From Hymenobacter sp. YIM 151858-1 (GTDB lineage Bacteria; Bacteroidota; Bacteroidia; Cytophagales; Hymenobacteraceae), in contig NZ_CP110136.1 of assembly GCF_025979705.1 (NCBI RefSeq), positions 2,418,001 through 2,482,000 on the forward strand: a stretch of DNA of 64,000 nt. The letters run 5' to 3'. The notes under the pieces are model-generated. The model ran no database searches. It was not told the DNA's origin and worked only from the letters and a program-made list of their open reading frames with translations. Of the stretch, positions 38,910-47,234 are shown piece after piece; position 1 is the stretch's first letter; each line of letters opens with the position of its first letter. The position numbers and the translations under genes were made by a program.

Positions 38910-39470
38910 CTACTGCGCGGCCTTGGCGGCCAGGTGCCGGTCGACGATGTCGGCCACGGCGGCAAAGGGCTCGTCGGGGCGCAAGGCTTCCAGGTCGGCG
39001 GCTATTTCCTGAAACGTGGTGCGCACGCTTTGGTCCGTCAGGCCGGGCTGGGTACGCCCCCGCGCCAGCAACGGCCGCGCAATGCGGCCCGACCACAGCC
39101 GGATATCGGGCGCCCAGGCCCCGATGCGCACGCCCGCGTACAGCAACTCGGCCTGCAAGCGGCTGCAACCCCCGGCCTGGCAGGCGAAGTAAAACATCCG
39201 GTCGGCCTCGCGCCGGTTCACGCGCGCGTCGGCGCAGGCCACATCGTGCACGATGGAGGCGCGCCGGTACTCCCCGGTGTACGGCGAGCCAATGGTAGAC
39301 CAAAGCGGCGCCGGAATGCTGGCACCGTCGATAACGGAGCCGGCCGGCGCCACCCACGTGCGCCCGTCGGGGTCGGTGTACCAAAAGTCTTCCAGCAGAA
39401 GCATGCGGCGGTCGGCCCCGGCTTCGGGGAGCCACTCGGTGCGCGGGTTTCCGGAAAAGCGTCCGTACAT
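38910..39470 (-). CDS. DUF1353 family protein
   Basis: A 186-residue protein. DUF1353 motifs are clear: VAPAGSVIDGASIPAPLWST, GEYRRASIVHDVACADA and READRMFYFACQAGG, containing conserved His and Asp residues. These may form a metal-dependent active site. DUF1353 domains occur in phage and bacterial genomes, sometimes near structural genes; no phage genes are near. It lies downstream of the I9-like and subtilase genes on the same strand (118 bases), so a shared transcript is plausible. Confidence 0.83.
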   Translation of the reverse strand: MYGRFSGNPRTEWLPEAGADRRMLLLEDFWYTDPDGRTWVAPAGSVIDGASIPAPLWSTIGSPYTGEYRRASIVHDVACADARVNRREADRMFYFACQAGGCSRLQAELLYAGVRIGAWAPDIRLWSGRIARPLLARGRTQPGLTDQSVRTTFQEIAADLEALRPDEPFAAVADIVDRHLAAKAAQ

Positions 39471-39587
39471 AGCGGTGGTGGATGGGTGTAGTGTCAGGAC
39501 TGAAACGCTTGCCGGATGGCGCGGCGGCACCTCACAGGGCGGCTGCCGGGCTTGGCGCAGCGCCTGCCCCGCCCCGGTCCCCAGGCG

Positions 39588-39827
39588 CTACCACGTCAGG
39601 GGGCTTTCGGGCGGGGGCAGCTGCATGTCGGCGTCGGGCGATACATCGGCCACGCCCGGCAGCCGCCGCACCTGCTGGGCCACGTCGTCGGTGCCGGTGC
39701 CGATGATGCAGTTTATCTGATCGAGAATTTGCCGAATGGCAAAGCCGTGGCTTTTCAGCTGCTCGGCCAGGGCCGGCAAGGGCGTGCGCCCGTCCACGGT
39801 TACAATCCACTGTCGGTTTGCTGGCAT
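39588..39827 (-). CDS. Stand-alone I9-like (subtilisin propeptide) protein
   Basis: A 79-residue protein from the ATG at 39827. The fold pattern is that of subtilisin propeptides: NRQWIVTVDGRTPLPALAEQ strand-helix, then QILDQINCIIGTGTDDV and VRRLPGVADVSPD, matching the LPGVxxVexD end of I9 domains. It has no signal peptide. The subtilase gene lies upstream at 39998-41359, on the same strand, 170 bases away. Free I9 proteins act as chaperones or inhibitors of subtilases, so it may control this protease; that role is inference. Confidence 0.65.
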   Translation of the reverse strand: MPANRQWIVTVDGRTPLPALAEQLKSHGFAIRQILDQINCIIGTGTDDVAQQVRRLPGVADVSPDADMQLPPPESPLTW

Positions 39828-39997
39828 AGCGAGGTTGGCATTTGGCTGAACCCATGCGTAAGCTACCACCCGTTGGGGCCCGAAAAAAGCAGTACAGGAT
39901 CAGGCACCCGAGGTACCTGATCCTGCCCGGAGCCCGGGGGCAGCGCACCCGGCAGAGTACGGCGCCCGCCCCCGGGCTCCTACCCGGTGAACTTCAC

Positions 39998-41359
39998 CTA
40001 GGGTGCCTGCACCAGCCCGGCCCCCACCCGCGTTACCGGGAACGGAAGGCGCCGCGCGGCGGCCTGCAGCCGCCGCCACAGCGTAAGGCCACGCATGTTG
40101 GGCGAGGTTTCGGCCCATAGCGCCGCGCAGCCGGCCACGTGGGGCGTGGCCATGCTGGTGCCGCTGATGGTGCGGTAGCGCACAGGCCGGGGCCACGACG
40201 AAAACACATCCCTACCCGGCGCGGCAATCTCAATCTTGCCGGAGTTGGAGAACGAGGAAGGGCTCAGGCTCGGATCGAGCGACGCCACCGACATGATGGT
40301 GGGCGAGTTGGCGGGAGCACCGGTGGGGCCGGCCTCGTTGCCGGCGGCGGCAATTATTAGGCAGCCGTTGTTGAGGGCGGCCTGGCCGGCGGCCGTGTAG
40401 GCCGGCTGCACGCCAATGGGCGCCCCCAACGACATCGAAATGACGGCGCACCGGTTGGCAATGGCCCAGTTCATGCCGGCCAGCACGCTGGCCATGGTAC
40501 CCGAGCCGGAGTTGGTGAGCACCTTGCCGGAGTAAATGGAGGAGCGGAAGCCAATGCCGTAGCGGGGCGTGGTGCCCACGGGCGCTTTGGGCCCGCAAGC
40601 CGTACCGGTGCAGTGCGTGCCGTGGCCGTGCAAATCCTGCACGGGCTGGCCCACAAAGGTTTGCCCGATAACGGGCCGCCCCGCAAAATCGGGGTGCCCC
40701 AGGTCGAAACCCGTATCGAGCACCGCCACCCGAATGCCCAGGCCGCTGCGCATGCTTGGGGGTACGCGGCAGGCGTTCAGGCCCCAGGTGGCGCCCAACA
40801 CCTGCACGTCCTGGTCAATCTCGAGGTGGGCGTGGCCGTGGTGGCCGTTGCGCAGCTCTTTGGCCAGAATTTCGGTAGCCTGCAGAAAGCCCCGCAAAAA
40901 GTCGCTGTTGCCGTTGCCCGATTCGGCGGTTTCCAGGGCCGGGTCCATAAACTGCACGGGGTACTGCACCGCAAACTGGAAGAACTCCGGGTTTACCGAC
41001 TCCACCGGGTCGTCGGCGCGGGCCTCAAACTGCGCGTTCATGCTGCGCTCCTGCGCCGCCTCGCCGCCCACCAAGGCCACGTTGATTTCCGGAAACACTA
41101 TCGCATCGGCATCGCCCACGCTTTCGAGGGTAGCGGCCTGCCCCTCAAAGTCGCGCGCATCGGCCACGCGCATGCCTTGCGTGGTGCCCAAGGAGCGCAG
41201 GCCCTCTTCGCCGGCTCCCTCCTTAAATGTCACCAGAAAACGCCCGGTTTCCAGGCTGTCGTCGCCGCGCTCCATAGCCGCCAGCAGCAGCTCTTCGATG
41301 GAAGAAGACGCACGATTAGCAGAGGATCCTTCGGCGGATCCGTTTCGATTTTTAGCCAT
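39998..41359 (-). CDS. S8 family serine peptidase (subtilase) without signal peptide
   Basis: A 453-residue subtilase. The triad is Asp215 (VAVLDTGFD), His246 (LHGHGTHC) and Ser402 (SGTSMATPHVAG), with Asn341 as the oxyanion residue (AAAGNEAG). The N-terminal 100 residues contain a propeptide-like segment (GRFLVTFKEGAGEEGLRSLG). The start MAKNRNGSAEGSS has no export signal, so it may act in the cytoplasm or use another route. The stop TAG is inside CCTAGG. A small I9-like gene and a DUF1353 gene follow on the same strand. Confidence 0.93.
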   Translation of the reverse strand: MAKNRNGSAEGSSANRASSSIEELLLAAMERGDDSLETGRFLVTFKEGAGEEGLRSLGTTQGMRVADARDFEGQAATLESVGDADAIVFPEINVALVGGEAAQERSMNAQFEARADDPVESVNPEFFQFAVQYPVQFMDPALETAESGNGNSDFLRGFLQATEILAKELRNGHHGHAHLEIDQDVQVLGATWGLNACRVPPSMRSGLGIRVAVLDTGFDLGHPDFAGRPVIGQTFVGQPVQDLHGHGTHCTGTACGPKAPVGTTPRYGIGFRSSIYSGKVLTNSGSGTMASVLAGMNWAIANRCAVISMSLGAPIGVQPAYTAAGQAALNNGCLIIAAAGNEAGPTGAPANSPTIMSVASLDPSLSPSSFSNSGKIEIAAPGRDVFSSWPRPVRYRTISGTSMATPHVAGCAALWAETSPNMRGLTLWRRLQAAARRLPFPVTRVGAGLVQAP

Positions 41360-41657: not shown

Positions 41658-42293
41658 CTAGGTGGCGTTGGCGGTTTCTACCGATTGTACCCAGCCCTCC
41701 ATCACGGCCTGCACCGCCAGGCCCACAATGGTTTTGGTGCCGGCCTTTTGCAGCAGGGCCCGCCGGTGGCTTTCCACGGTGCGCACGCTCAGGCACAGGC
41801 GGTCGGCAATTTCCTGGTTGCTGCGGTCGGCCACTACCAAGCGCAGCACCTCCAGCTCGCGCCGGCTGAACGGGCTCAGCGGCGCGGGCGCGGGCAGGGC
41901 CGCGTGTTTCGGGAGCGAAGTGGCCAGCCAGCTGCTTAGCGCAGCAATAACGACTTCGGCCACGGCCTGCCCCGATACTTGGTAATAGTCGGCGCCCGGC
42001 GGCGCCTGCGTACCGGTTTTGGCGCCCTCGTGGGCCGTAAGCAGGATTAGCCGCGTACGGCGGCACTGGTAGCGCAGCGAGGCCAGCAGCCGGGCGGGGC
42101 TGGTGTCGAGGTACGATTCCTCGGCCAGAATGGCGGCGTAGTATTGCCGGGCCAGCAGCTCGCGCAGCGAGCCGGCGCTGGCGGCCAGGGTAATGGCCGT
42201 GTTGGGCCAGGCCCGGTGAATGGTGTCGATTAGCTGCTGGCGGTACGCGCCCGGGTGCACGGCCACGAGCACATCGTAACTGGGCGAAGACAT
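41658..42293 (-). CDS. LuxR-type regulator with degenerate receiver
   Basis: A 211-residue protein. The N-terminal 120 residues have a response-regulator-like alternation of strands and helices, but the phosphoacceptor Asp is replaced: YYAAILAEESYLDTS has Glu at about 58-59, and the acidic pair near the start is LVAVHPGA. The C-terminal LuxR HTH is intact: FSRRELEVLRLVVADRSNQE and LCLSVRTVESHRRALL. It is probably controlled by something other than phosphorylation. Its TAG stop is inside CCTAGG. A 21-bp-spaced direct repeat lies upstream. Confidence 0.87.
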   Translation of the reverse strand: MSSPSYDVLVAVHPGAYRQQLIDTIHRAWPNTAITLAASAGSLRELLARQYYAAILAEESYLDTSPARLLASLRYQCRRTRLILLTAHEGAKTGTQAPPGADYYQVSGQAVAEVVIAALSSWLATSLPKHAALPAPAPLSPFSRRELEVLRLVVADRSNQEIADRLCLSVRTVESHRRALLQKAGTKTIVGLAVQAVMEGWVQSVETANAT

Positions 42294-42409
42294 AATAAGT
42301 GCTGGGGGAAATAGCGGACAATGGGCATAGGCATCGGCAGATAGGTTGTGCAATAGGGATAGGTATGCAGTGCTTGGCTTGGCTACTGCGGCGCGATAGG
42401 GTTAATTTA

Positions 42410-42561: not shown

Positions 42562-43386
42562 CTAGGGCCGCTGCCCCACCAGCAGTTTGGTGGCCGTGCG
42601 GCCGCGCTTGGCGTGGTGGGCCCGCACCCAGTACGTGCCGGCAGGCAAACTGCCCAACTCCAGCGTGGCCGCCCCGCGGGCGGCCGGCAGCGCCAAGCGG
42701 GTGCGGCCCTGCGCATCCACCACTTCGAGGTGGTACGTGCCGGTATCGGCAAGCACTATGGTGGTTTGCCCGGCGGCCGGGTTGGGGTACACGCTGGCTA
42801 TGAGGCTTTCGGTGGCCGGTGCCTGCGGGCCCGGCCCCGGCCTGCCACCTAGGCGGTAGGTAGTGCAGCTATCGAGCACGGCCTCGTAAAAGGGCCGCAG
42901 CGTTTTTGCCTCGAAGCGCAGCCGCGTGGGTTCGCCTTTCGGGTTTCGGGCACTTACCAACTGGCCAAATGCCCCGCTCCTTACTGCCCGCGCCAACGGC
43001 GCCAGCTGTTCGTAGTCGCTGATGAGGCCGGTTACCTTGTTGGCTTTTATGCGCGCGGCGTGCACCCAGTACGCGCCGCCGGGCCGGGCTTGCACCAGGT
43101 AGAACAGGCGCTTGTAACGGTAGGCCCAGCCGTGCAGCAGGGTATCGCCGCTGGCGGCGCTGGTAATCAGGTTGAGTTGGGTGGCGGGCTCGTAGCGCAC
43201 GCGCAGGCGCAGCGTATCGCGGGGGCCCACGAGCACCACGGCGGGCCCGCCTAGCAGCTGCTCCAGGCTCAGGCGTTGGCGGGGCGGCACGTGGCCAAAC
43301 GGCACCGGCTCAAAGGCAATACCTGGGTCGCAGGCCGTGGCGGCGGCCAGCACGGCAGCGGCAGCAAAAGCAAGCGTCGTTTTCAT
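42562..43386 (-). CDS. T9SS-exported protein with C-terminal sorting domain
   Basis: A 274-residue exported protein. The signal peptide is MKTTLAFAAAAVLAAATAC (a lipoprotein-type Cys is possible at about residue 19). The last 80 residues form a type IX secretion sorting domain: ASVYPNPAAGQTTIVLAD, YHLEVVDAQGRTRLAL, LPAGTYWVRA and a KLLVGQ end. The middle part (about 25-190) is beta-rich without a known catalytic motif. T9SS cargo is carried across the outer membrane and often attached to the surface. Its TAG stop is inside CCTAGG. Confidence 0.85.
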   Translation of the reverse strand: MKTTLAFAAAAVLAAATACDPGIAFEPVPFGHVPPRQRLSLEQLLGGPAVVLVGPRDTLRLRVRYEPATQLNLITSAASGDTLLHGWAYRYKRLFYLVQARPGGAYWVHAARIKANKVTGLISDYEQLAPLARAVRSGAFGQLVSARNPKGEPTRLRFEAKTLRPFYEAVLDSCTTYRLGGRPGPGPQAPATESLIASVYPNPAAGQTTIVLADTGTYHLEVVDAQGRTRLALPAARGAATLELGSLPAGTYWVRAHHAKRGRTATKLLVGQRP

Positions 43387-43483
43387 GGGCGGGTGTAGCA
43401 GCAACGGTGGCTGTCTGTTTATCAGCCACTTTGCCCCTAGGTAACCCTTGCTGCTTTTGGTATTCGGAGGGCCGCGCCAGCCC

Positions 43484-44431
43484 TTAATCCGATTGCGTAT
43501 CGGGCAGTGATTTGGCCGTCGATTTCGTGCCGTCTTTTTTCTTGCCGCCTTTTTTGTGCTTGCTCAGCTCGGCGGTGTATTCGATGATTTTGCCGGCAAT
43601 ATCGAGGCCGGTGGCTTTCTCGATGCCCTCGAGCCCCGGCGACGAGTTTACCTCCAGCACCAGCGGGCCGCGCTTGCTCTGCAGCATATCCACGCCGGCA
43701 ATGCCCAGGCCCAGGGCTTTGGTGGCCAGCAGGGCAGCGGCTTTTTCGGCGCGCGTCAGCTTCACGAGCTTGCCCGTGCCGCCGCGGTGCAGGTTCGAGC
43801 GAAACTCGCCCTCTTTGCCCTGCCGCTTCATGGCGCCGACCACCTCGCCGTTCACCACAAAGGCGCGCAGGTCGGCGCCTTTGCTTTCGGCAATAAACTC
43901 CTGCACGATAATGCGGGCCTTGAGGTTGTGGAAGGCCTCGATTACCGACTGCGCGGCCTTTTCGGTTTCGGCCAGCACCACGCCCAGGCCCTGCGTGCCC
44001 TCCAGCAGCTTGATGATAACGGGCGCGCCGCCCACCTGCTGAATCATTTCCAGCACCTCGTCGGAGTAGTTGGTGAAGGCGGTTTTGGGCATGCCCACGC
44101 CGGCGCGGGCCAAAATCTGCATGGAGCGCAGCTTGTCGCGCGAGCGTACAATGGCCTGGCTTTCGACGGCGGTGCGCACTTTCATCATCTCGAACTGCCG
44201 CACCACGGCCGTGCCGTAGAAGGTAACCGAGGCGCCGATGCGCGGAATCACGGCATCGAAGCCTTCGAGCTTGCGGCCCTCGTACACAATGCTGGGGGCA
44301 CCTTTTTCCAGCACCAGGTTGCACTGCAAATGGTCGATGACTTCGACTTCGTGGCCGCGCAGCTCGGCCGCTTCCACCAGGCGCTTCGTGGAGTACAGTT
44401 TGGGCTCACGCGAGAGAATCGCCAGTTTCAT
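43484..44431 (-). CDS. rimK: RimK-like ATP-grasp glutamate ligase
   Basis: A 315-residue ATP-grasp ligase. The start is [18 protein letters not shown] (ATG at 44431). Conserved parts: [18 protein letters not shown] (ATP grasp), [18 protein letters not shown], and [20 protein letters not shown] at the metal site. RimK adds glutamates to ribosomal protein S6. A lysine-rich tail follows the catalytic core. The gene is 50 bases downstream of a RimB-type protease gene on the same strand; together they match the known RimK/RimB pair. S6 as substrate is the family assumption. Confidence 0.93.
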
Positions 44432-44481
44432 ATGGTAAACGAGGGTATAGCTGAGGAAGAAAACAAGTGGGCCGCTACCCA

Positions 44482-44961
44482 CTAATTGGGCATGCGCAGG
44501 TGCTGGCTTTTGTACGACAAGTTGCGCCTCGACACATCCACCATCAACCGGGCCCGGCGCAACAACAACCGCCCGATAAGTACGGGGTACTTCATATCGG
44601 AGCGGTCGGAAAGCGAAAATTCCGTCTCGAAATCTTCGCCGAACAAGCGAATTACGGCCCTAATTACGTAACGCTCCTGCACTTCGCCGTTGGAGGAGCG
44701 AATATCGCGCAGCGAAAACTCCTCGAACTGCAGCGGCATGCCGTGGAAAGCGGGGTGGGCGTCGTCGAGCAGCAGCACGCGCAGCAGCGGCCGCCCATCG
44801 GGCAGCGTATCCACGTGGATGTTGGAGCAATGGATGGCGCCCGTAAACGCGCCGGTGTCCACCTTGGCCTCTACCCCGCGCAGCTGAAACTGCGGAAAGT
44901 CGACAAGCTCGCGGCGGCCTACGATGCGTTTCGGGGGTCGTCGGGGGTGGGCCTTTTTCAC
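44482..44961 (-). CDS. rimB: RimB-like retropepsin-type protease
   Basis: A 159-residue protein of the family annotated as ATP-dependent zinc protease (DUF785, RimB). [18 protein letters not shown] carries the aspartic-protease-like DTG (Asp35-Thr36-Gly37), and a second motif is [20 protein letters not shown]. The start is a GTG at 44961; no ATG is available nearby. In pseudomonads RimB trims glutamate tails added by RimK. Its position just upstream of RimK supports this role. TATTTTG at 44964 is close to a -7 box. Confidence 0.88.
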
Positions 44962-46673: not shown

Positions 46674-47234
46674 ATGTCTCTCCCCCACTCTGCTTCCCGC
46701 GAATTCGGCCGCATCCTGCTCGCGCACGGCGACATTACCAAGCTCGACACCGATGCCATCGTCAACGCCGCCAACTCCTCGCTCCTGGGGGGCGGCGGAG
46801 TCGATGGGGCCATCCACCGGGCCGGCGGCGCCCAAATCCTCGACGAGTGCCGCTCCATCCGGGCGCGCAGCGGCAACCTGGCCACCGGCAAAGCCGTGAT
46901 TACCAGCGGCGGCAAGCTGCACGCGCGCCACGTTATTCATACGGTGGGCCCGGTGTGGCAGGGCGGCGGGCAAGAGGAGCCCCAGCTGCTGGCCAACTGC
47001 TACAACAGCTCGTTGCAGCTGGCCGCCGAGCACCGGCTGCGCAGCATCGCGTTTCCGGGCATCAGCACGGGCATCTACGGCTACCCCAAAGCCGAGGCCG
47101 CGCGCATAGCCGTGCAAACCGTGCGCGACTACCTGCTGCACCACGAGCTACCCGAAATAGTGGTGTTCGTGCTGTTCGATGAAGAAAACCTGCACCTCTA
47201 CGAACGCGAGCTGACGGCCTTATCGGAAGTCTAG
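46674..47234 (+). CDS. Macrodomain protein (O-acetyl-ADP-ribose deacetylase-like)
   Basis: A 186-residue stand-alone macrodomain. The ADP-ribose loops are clear: DAIVNAANSSLLGGGGVDGA (residues about 27-46) and FPGISTGIYGYP (about 125-136), with VIHTVGPVW in between. It probably hydrolyses O-acetyl-ADP-ribose or reverses ADP-ribosylation, like YmdB. It stops two bases from the end of the convergent hydrolase gene, and both ends share a gtctagccctagg segment. No ADP-ribosyltransferase is visible nearby. Confidence 0.93.
   Translation: MSLPHSASREFGRILLAHGDITKLDTDAIVNAANSSLLGGGGVDGAIHRAGGAQILDECRSIRARSGNLATGKAVITSGGKLHARHVIHTVGPVWQGGGQEEPQLLANCYNSSLQLAAEHRLRSIAFPGISTGIYGYPKAEAARIAVQTVRDYLLHHELPEIVVFVLFDEENLHLYERELTALSEV

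What the first reader, a model, noticed from the sequence alone, without database searches (positions are those of the whole stretch)
38910..41359. Cytoplasmic-type subtilase with separate I9-like protein and DUF1353
The subtilase has a complete triad but no signal peptide. Next to it is a 79-residue stand-alone protein with an I9 propeptide pattern, then a DUF1353 protein with conserved His/Asp. A protease with a separate control protein and a third putative enzyme resembles a small regulated-proteolysis or toxin-like module.
Basis: partly seen in the sequence, partly recalled or inferred. Interest (0 to 1): 0.55.

Follow-up and report, generated by a model that had tools for sequence, protein, structure and literature searches.

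The report
Bacterial protease with separate inhibitor-like protein
Many distantly related bacteria carry a gene pair in which a protein-cutting enzyme that probably stays inside the cell sits beside a small protein shaped like the plug that normally keeps such enzymes off, which suggests a widespread and apparently undescribed way to hold a dangerous enzyme in check.

Summary
In detail: a subtilase (39998-41359, -) with complete triad and no apparent signal peptide, a 79-residue protein (39588-39827, -) predicted to have the subtilisin-propeptide (I9) fold, and a DUF1353 gene (38910-39470, -). Two corrections. The subtilase keeps its own I9-type prodomain (residues 39-131), so the small protein is an extra, trans copy. 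And DUF1353, a family that includes a phospholipase A2, is only a neighbour: no homologue was found in any other pair locus held. The subtilase-small gene pair is conserved: 5 of 5 family relatives, 9 of 9 plasmid regions read (one being a family relative), and 64 of 79 genome loci from eight phyla directly adjacent; ten loci lack it nearby. Proposed mechanism: the cis prodomain is a cleavable folding aid; the small protein is a reversible inhibitor that resists cleavage, since 38 of 59 members have proline just after the residue that would lie in the active site (3 of 54 cis prodomains do) and 8 end before it. The lock is weaker outside that set (6 of 13). Binding and inhibition are untested. 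Precedents: yeast IB2, POIA1, Plasmodium SUB1-ProM. New variant of a known kind.

The parts
39998..41359 (-). Cytoplasmic-type S8 subtilase, 453 aa
   Evidence: ORF; Pfam Peptidase_S8 E 2.3e-41; model mean pLDDT 89.2; best match unautoprocessed pro-subtilisin E, Z 42.2
40967..41248 (-). I9-type prodomain in cis (residues 38-131); Glu125, taken as the equivalent of Asp71 of the BPN' propeptide, is Glu in 54 of 54 rows
   Evidence: (model residues 39-453 aligned to pro-subtilisin E 8-361)
40001..40801 (-). Catalytic domain (residues 187-453), D215/H246/N341/S402
39588..39827 (-). Stand-alone I9-fold protein, 79 aa, proposed trans inhibitor
   Evidence: conserved next to the subtilase
39609..39617 (-). 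Residues P71-P72-P73 of the small protein: proposed P1, P1' and P2' positions (cleavage-resistant lock)
   Evidence: one search aligns model residues 4-71 with propeptide residues up to Tyr77; composition
39894..39926 (-). Terminator-like hairpin (15-bp stem, T-run) between subtilase and small gene
   Evidence: (region 39830-40000: z -5.37, 0 of 200 shuffles as stable)
38910..39470 (-). DUF1353 protein, possible phospholipase A2 (H75, D76, D90); neighbour only, not a conserved part of the pair (a GTG start at 39530 is also possible)
41658..42353 (-). LuxR-type (GerE) regulator upstream of the subtilase; no DNA match at the corresponding site of relative G025

Best explanation
A subtilisin-type protease that stays in the cytoplasm is made as a pro-enzyme. 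Its own I9-type prodomain folds the catalytic domain and can be cut off, after which the protease would be active inside the cell. The neighbouring gene makes a second, free-standing I9-fold protein that docks on the mature protease as a propeptide would and puts its C-terminal strand into the substrate cleft. In a majority of members the bond that would lie at the catalytic serine is followed by proline, or the chain stops before it, so the plug is not cut. The protease is thus held off reversibly and would be released when it outnumbers the inhibitor or when the inhibitor is removed. Shown here: fold, family relationships, conserved adjacency, residue patterns. Inferred: binding, inhibition, cytoplasmic location, the non-cleavable lock and the releasing signal.
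For: Fold: the small protein's model matches subtilisin propeptides best and also the stand-alone inhibitor POIA1 (1v5i_B, Z 8.4). Sequence: a profile of the family, run on 446 ORFs of 24 loci of generic subtilases, hits 21 proteins at E up to 0.1, all of them the subtilases, at the end of the stretch before the catalytic domain; 9 of the 24 PDB hits at E up to 1 are subtilisin-type proteases or propeptides, each weak and seven of them forms of one protein, Tk-subtilisin; the only plasmid hit of P0001 is an S8 peptidase, E 9e-3. Adjacency: 5 of 5 family relatives, 9 of 9 plasmid regions read (one is the family relative G031), 64 of 79 genome loci within 200 bases downstream on the same strand; conversely the three phylum genomes other than our own with a clear small-gene hit all have the subtilase beside it. 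Control: no stand-alone copy in the 24 generic loci (about 1.5 kb a side). Cis/trans contrast: Pro at P1' in 38 of 48 ungapped trans rows versus 3 of 50 ungapped cis rows (Fisher p 2.5e-14, not corrected for kinship); P4-equivalent V/I/F/Y/M/L in 56 of 59. Five members end exactly at the P1 position when read without gaps (L108, L128, L149, Vibrio, Deinococcus). Cis prodomain sits as in pro-subtilisin E. Distances of small protein and catalytic domain correlate over 44 pairs, Mantel r 0.59, 0 of 2000 (expected of any linked pair).
Against: No binding or inhibition was measured and no complex was modelled. Pfam I9 does not recognise the family (below cut-off; 1 of 59 members at E up to 0.01). 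NapD (Z 9.1, but rmsd 6.1), MORF proteins (Foldseek ranks 8-9) and other ferredoxin-like proteins (Z 7-8) also match; NapD is hit by 2 of 59 members in Pfam. Ten of 79 loci lack the small gene nearby and six of 40 genomes lack it altogether, so it is not strictly needed. The Pro lock is absent in 21 of 59: 11 have no residue at that column in the alignment, but read without gaps only 8 of them end before it. Two full-length rows left out of the 59 (L081, L086) lack it too, and in the 13 family and plasmid members outside the set I read Pro in 6, an end at P1 in 2, another residue in 5. The tail is the least certain part of the model (block pLDDT 74 and 60). In this genome and in G064 a terminator-like hairpin separates the genes, so they may not be co-transcribed there.
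Confidence: 0.7

Rival explanations
1. The small protein is a trans-acting folding chaperone (a foldase copy of the propeptide) rather than a lasting inhibitor.
For: Same fold as propeptides, which chaperone folding.
Against: The subtilase already has its own prodomain in the canonical place; Pro after the P1 position suits a lasting inhibitor better; six Saccharopolyspora genomes keep the subtilase without any small gene.
Confidence: 0.13
2. Toxin-antitoxin or addiction unit: the free protease is toxic and the small protein is its antitoxin.
For: Patchy spread across phyla and presence on plasmids; tight spacing, overlapping by 4 bases in L075 and nine Pedobacter loci.
Against: In G025 no subtilase of this type was found and the small gene is a decaying remnant, so there is no sign of obligatory retention; some lineages keep the protease alone; toxicity untested.
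Confidence: 0.1
3. Part of a larger intracellular hydrolase cascade or self-destruction unit in which the released subtilase activates neighbouring trypsin-nuclease proteins.
For: Six of 23 Endonuclease_NS matches in 40 genomes lie within 8 kb of the pair, about 0.06 expected (my arithmetic); four of the six are fused to Trypsin_2; trypsin-like neighbours in four further loci and on one plasmid.
Against: Post hoc: the 40 genomes were chosen to include the six loci where it had been seen; two of the six are Aldersonia; not seen in most loci, nor in this window.
Confidence: 0.1
4. The small protein is a ferredoxin-fold binding protein of another kind (NapD-like or ACT-like), adjacent for other reasons.
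For: NapD hits.
Against: Propeptides outrank it in both structure searches, and NapD aligns only at rmsd 6.1; the subtilase is the recurrent neighbour.
Confidence: 0.06

Closest known systems
Stand-alone I9 inhibitors: yeast proteinase B inhibitor (IB2), POIA1, Arabidopsis SPI-1, TgMIC5
   Same: Small separate gene product with the propeptide fold; POIA1 matches the model at Z 8.4.
   Different: Eukaryotic; named as the characterised examples in PMC6993865 (passages seen). Here bacterial, in a gene pair with the presumed target, with Pro after the P1 position in a majority of the aligned members.
Plasmodium SUB1-ProM (PMC6993865, passages seen)
   Same: Propeptide mimic encoded next to subtilase genes, the target having its own prodomain; reported as a potent inhibitor of SUB1.
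   Different: Eukaryotic, with a secretory signal; here no signal peptide is apparent on either protein and the pair is spread over bacterial phyla.
Bacillus intracellular subtilisin Isp1 and its inhibitor IPI (PMC3901451, passages seen)
   Same: Cytoplasmic subtilisin with an intracellular protein inhibitor.
   Different: Isp1 has an 18-residue propeptide; IPI has an Ig-like fold and, by that paper, lies close to a subtilisin gene in none of the completely sequenced species.
TtaP, a DUF1353 phospholipase A2 (PMC11525133, passages seen)
   Same: The third gene is a DUF1353 protein with the catalytic residues at the same spacing.
   Different: Concerns the neighbour gene only; no link to the subtilase pair is conserved.

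Membership tests
Peptidase family S8 (subtilisin type) | S8 catalytic domain with Asp/His/Ser triad and oxyanion Asn | tested here: met
Peptidase family S8 (subtilisin type) | I9-type prodomain in cis | tested here: met
   residues 39-453 align with pro-subtilisin E, Z 42.2; by sequence Pfam does not report I9 for it
Inhibitor family I9 (Pfam PF05922) | Score above the curated Pfam cut-off | tested here: not met
   14.8 against 21.2 bits; 1 of 59 members at E up to 0.01; no match in our own genome
[quoted passage not shown]
Stand-alone I9 inhibitors | Own gene, not a fragment of an enzyme precursor | tested here: met
   separate ORFs in the pair loci
Stand-alone I9 inhibitors | Inhibits a subtilase | not testable with these tools
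   needs an enzyme assay
Bacillus-type intracellular subtilisin (ISP) | Short propeptide instead of an I9 prodomain | tested here: not met
   the 18-residue propeptide is from PMC3901451
Toxin-antitoxin system | One product toxic, the other neutralising | not testable with these tools
   needs expression tests
Known phage-defence systems (PADLOC) | Match to the proteins of a complete known system | tested here: inconclusive
   the subtilase hits the subtilase and IetS models only; no hit for the other two proteins
DUF1353 phospholipase A2 | DUF1353 domain with His, Asp+1, Asp+15 | tested here: met
   (neighbour gene; activity not testable here)

The most novel reading that the evidence does not exclude
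A transferable intracellular proteolysis switch of bacteria: a cytoplasmic pro-subtilisin whose fully active form is held by a separate, proline-locked propeptide mimic; in some lineages a tandem catalytically dead copy of the protease serves as a decoy that soaks up the inhibitor, and in others the freed subtilase triggers neighbouring cytosolic trypsin-nuclease proteins, so that the unit acts as the trigger of a protease cascade that damages or kills the cell.
Probability: 0.12. Interest if true: 0.85.

Novelty: new variant of a known kind. Interest (0 to 1): 0.6.

Why it matters
The characterised stand-alone propeptide mimics named in the paper seen (PMC6993865) are a handful of eukaryotic inhibitors. 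A bacterial family, neighbour to its presumed target in eight phyla and not recognised by Pfam, gives many natural protease-inhibitor pairs on which specificity, resistance of an inhibitor to cleavage and the origin of such inhibitors can be tested directly. It also offers a likely function for genes annotated as hypothetical protein next to S8 family peptidases, and the catalytically dead tandem copies offer a test of decoy regulation.

Tried and rejected
DUF1353 as a third part: rejected for lack of co-occurrence. The small protein as a split-off propeptide: rejected, since the subtilase keeps its own. Viral origin: a scan of viral contigs gave 3 pattern matches, none encoding a relative; 31 phage records have S8 matches, none covering 80% of the query. 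Against this stands one strong PHROG hit of the subtilase (phrog_3677, protease, E 2.1e-56, residues 182-421), not followed up; the tail-chaperone PHROG hit of DUF1353 (phrog_1158, 1e-25) was not followed up either. Known defence system: the subtilase hits only the subtilase and IetS models. Among 127 neighbour ORFs one is a strong GajA match (2.4e-207), three match mad3, two AriA and two nacht; nothing recurs widely, and which loci these are was not looked up. Constant partners besides the small gene: none in the listed clusters or family counts, but only 25 of 122 Pfam and 25 of 105 PADLOC families were listed, ORFs were called by a rough rule, and 127 of 175 selected ORFs were used. A cluster first read as an amidase proved to be trypsin-like; its L082 member has no Pfam hit and looks secreted; of the Amidase_2 matches I found only the L145 one near the pair. 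Sigma-70 promoter scan uninformative. A published description of the pair: none seen in nine paper searches (a tenth, 104, was on DUF1353); I saw listings and, for three papers, passages; the library lacks most subscription journals. The name 'ketohydroxyglutarate aldolase' for such small proteins is recalled; one search found no paper joining it with serine protease.

Rows dropped before counts: a 19-residue motif hit in L095; from A5 nine of 67 small genes (six near-duplicates, plus L081, L086 and the truncated L120); from A6 24 of 77 subtilase ORFs (near-duplicates and some with unsure starts). L107 cannot be judged, as its contig ends 393 bases after the stop. L120 and L135 count as adjacent although their subtilase frame is short (80 and 51 residues).
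Full report
What is there. Three genes run on the minus strand: subtilase 39998-41359, a 79-residue protein 39588-39827 and a DUF1353 protein 38910-39470. The subtilase is Peptidase_S8 (E 2.3e-41) with D215, H246, N341 and S402. By eye neither it nor the small protein has a signal peptide; no predictor was available. The window lies in a 4.6-Mb genome. One member of its family, G031, has the contig length and subtilase position of the Hymenobacter sp. BRD128 plasmid, so the family is probably Hymenobacteraceae.

The small protein is I9-like. Pfam alone would not say so: 14.8 bits against a cut-off of 21.2, and 1 of 59 family members at E up to 0.01. [quoted passage not shown] 3cnq_P 10.4; 1spb_P 10.2; Tk-subtilisin propeptides about 9; POIA1 8.4. 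Foldseek agrees, with 3whi_B at E 5.3e-4 and 1spb_P at 1.8e-3; MORF proteins follow at ranks 8-9. NapD scores Z 9.1 but at rmsd 6.1. A family profile run over 446 ORFs of 24 loci of generic subtilases hit 21 proteins at E up to 0.1, all of them the subtilases, mostly at residues of about 90-147, before the catalytic domain. Against PDB sequences the profile gives weak hits only (best 0.0062, a designed protein); 9 of the 24 are subtilisin-type, seven of these forms of Tk-subtilisin.

The subtilase has its own prodomain. Its model (54 sequences, mean pLDDT 89.2) aligns over residues 39-453 with unautoprocessed pro-subtilisin E (3whi_A, Z 42.2, rmsd 2.9, 327 residues) and over 187-453 with mature subtilisins. 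Glu125, which I take as the equivalent of Asp71 of the BPN' propeptide, is Glu in 54 of 54; Glu69 and Asp71 of that propeptide are described as capping helices of the catalytic domain in PMC6993865 (passages seen). The small protein is thus a second, trans copy.

The pair is conserved. In 150 family genomes this subtilase type stands apart by score (E 8.7e-66 or better, next 1.7e-26) in our own and five others, and all five have the small gene next. A search with the small protein alone found 4 of 150: our own, G064, a broken copy in G025 and a weak hit inside a 338-residue frame; so a single-sequence search misses most true partners. In a phylum sample of 395 genomes the clear hits other than our own (G396, G182, G228; E 1.1e-6 or better) all sit beside the subtilase; the 15 weaker ones (1.9e-4 to 0.0086) were not examined. 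Plasmid records gave 219 matches; I read nine regions from the top of the list (H1-H7, H9, H17; H8 and H10-H16 were not read), from Rhizobium, Methylobacterium, Streptomyces, Hymenobacter (the G031 plasmid again), Palleronia, Vibrio and Deinococcus. All nine have a small ORF next on the same strand, in the unannotated R. sullae record by my own reading; the annotated S. avidinii subtilase (295 aa) lacks the prodomain part. One scan of 84,980 genomes with a C-terminal pattern gave 308 stretches, 233 confirmed and 79 loci kept, in Acidobacteriota, Pseudomonadota, Actinomycetota, Bacteroidota, Cyanobacteriota, Chloroflexota, Planctomycetota and Nitrospirota. They include close kin: nine Pedobacter, seven Saccharopolyspora, one Mycobacterium species twice. 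Of the 79, the small gene is within 200 bases downstream on the same strand in 64 (59 by script, plus L088, L098, L104, L117, L123 read from the same output), 1.0-2.0 kb downstream in 3 (L097, L099, L100), next to it but divergent in 1 (L131), not found in the DNA held in 10, not assessable in 1.

The exceptions. The ten are seven Saccharopolyspora loci, L079, L080 and L095. Four of them were in a tree of catalytic domains (L079, L090, L095, L141) and form one branch (SH-aLRT 87, below the 95 that marks a firm branch), so the partner may have been lost once. Of 40 genomes searched whole, 34 hold a small gene; the six without are all Saccharopolyspora. S. aridisoli has one next to another S8 gene; that of the L095 genome has no S8 motif within 1.5 kb. 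The genomes of L079 and L080 were not searched whole. Phylum labels need 15 changes on the tree where 7 is the least possible; with the plasmid copies this suggests transfer but does not prove it.

Proposed mechanism. The structural alignment ends with residue 71 of the small protein opposite the last propeptide residue, Tyr77, the P1 residue (ranges only). In the 59 aligned members the P4-equivalent is V/I/F/Y/M/L in 56; the P1' column is Pro in 38, empty in 11 and other in 10. Read without gaps, 8 of the 11 end at or before P1 (five Pedobacter, L108, L128, L149), while L115, L116 and L142 reach P1' with another residue (from the tails, counted by eye: the anchor rule of the script misplaced several). 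In the cis prodomains P1' is Pro in 3 of 54, other in 47, gap in 4. In 13 members outside the set I read Pro in 6 (G064, G050, G042, Methylobacterium, S. jietaisiensis, Palleronia), an end exactly at P1 in 2 (Vibrio, Deinococcus) and another residue in 5. Bonds before proline resist serine proteases (established knowledge). So I propose that the cis copy is cleavable and the trans copy a lock, in a majority rather than in all. Members are related, so the Fisher value of 2.5e-14 overstates the case, and the register of the cis prodomain rests on Glu125.

Expression. In L075 and nine Pedobacter loci the small gene starts 4 bases before the subtilase ends. The median gap is 62 bases over 69 pairs, with starts chosen by rule. 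In our genome and in G064 a strong terminator-like hairpin lies between the genes; 6 of 46 gaps of at least 40 bases have one. There the two genes may be controlled separately.

History at this site. Relative G025 has the same flanks (91.9% over 1469 bases and 92.2% over 631) with only 103 bases (80.6%) of the small gene and, in the 3.25 kb held, no DNA match for DUF1353, the subtilase or the LuxR-type gene; the frame is broken and its best S8 match anywhere is far weaker (1.6e-16). The pair has been lost there.

DUF1353. The gene may encode a phospholipase A2: PMC11525133 (passages seen) shows that activity for the DUF1353 protein TtaP, and the catalytic residues keep their spacing here. It is a neighbour, not a partner: 7 related loci show no S8 motif in the DNA held, and no pair locus but our own holds a homologue.

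A wider theme, weaker. Six loci (L085, L091, L104, L116, L125, L127) have an Endonuclease_NS gene within 8 kb; four of the six proteins also carry Trypsin_2, while L085 and L091 show only the nuclease. In 40 genomes, about 234 Mb by the listed sizes, there are 23 such matches, so about 0.06 would be expected near the pair (my arithmetic). But the 40 genomes were chosen to include these six loci and two are Aldersonia. Trypsin-like neighbours without an apparent signal peptide occur in L086, L110, L130, L145 and on a Streptomyces plasmid.

Dead copies. In Spirosoma fluviale (L118) and in G396 (L044) the order is subtilase, small gene, second subtilase, and the second has lost both the catalytic Asp and Ser while keeping a full frame; L084 lacks the Ser.

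Verdict. The pair is real and widespread, and I saw no description of it in the papers searched. It has the fold of the stand-alone I9 inhibitors and probably works like them, but it fails the Pfam I9 cut-off and no inhibition has been shown. I file it as a new variant of a known kind.

Noticed in passing
L118:4828-8129 (+), L044:5-3204 (+), L084:8417-9760 (+): Subtilase - small gene - second subtilase arrangement in Spirosoma and in genome G396; the second copy has lost the catalytic Asp and Ser but keeps an intact frame (pseudoprotease). In L084 a subtilase with Ser replaced by Ala still has a small gene.
   Followed up: partly
L085, L091, L104, L116, L125, L127: Endonuclease_NS proteins, four of six also with a Trypsin_2 domain, near the pair in six loci of four phyla; about a hundred times the chance rate, but noticed post hoc.
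   Followed up: partly
L003:1660-1762 (G025): Decayed remnant of the small gene at the same chromosomal site in a genus relative that shows no subtilase, DUF1353 or LuxR-type gene there.
   Followed up: yes
window 39830-40000 (-): Two strong hairpins between subtilase and small gene, the second terminator-like; folding z-score -5.37.
   Followed up: partly
L069 (Vibrio alfacsensis pSEA2): The pair lies between a DndB-annotated gene and a DNA cytosine methyltransferase; two other Vibrio plasmids (H10, H11) have the same subtilase hit but were not read.
   Followed up: no
window 39998-41359 (-): The subtilase's catalytic domain hits phrog_3677 (protease, profile of 1125 positions) at E 2.1e-56, stronger than its Pfam match.
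   Followed up: no
neighbours of the pair, alignment A7: One neighbour ORF is a very strong GajA (Gabija) match, 2.4e-207.
   Followed up: no
G000:C1:1165197-1165499 (-): A second DUF1353 homologue (41%) elsewhere in the window's genome.
   Followed up: no
window 42562-43404 (-): Protein with a type IX secretion C-terminal sorting domain (Por_Secre_tail), next to the variable segment.
   Followed up: no
window 43484-44961 (-): RimK-like ATP-grasp gene beside a small retropepsin-like gene; names by eye, from no call.
   Followed up: no
window 46674-47234 (+): Macro-domain-like protein; name by eye, from no call.
   Followed up: no
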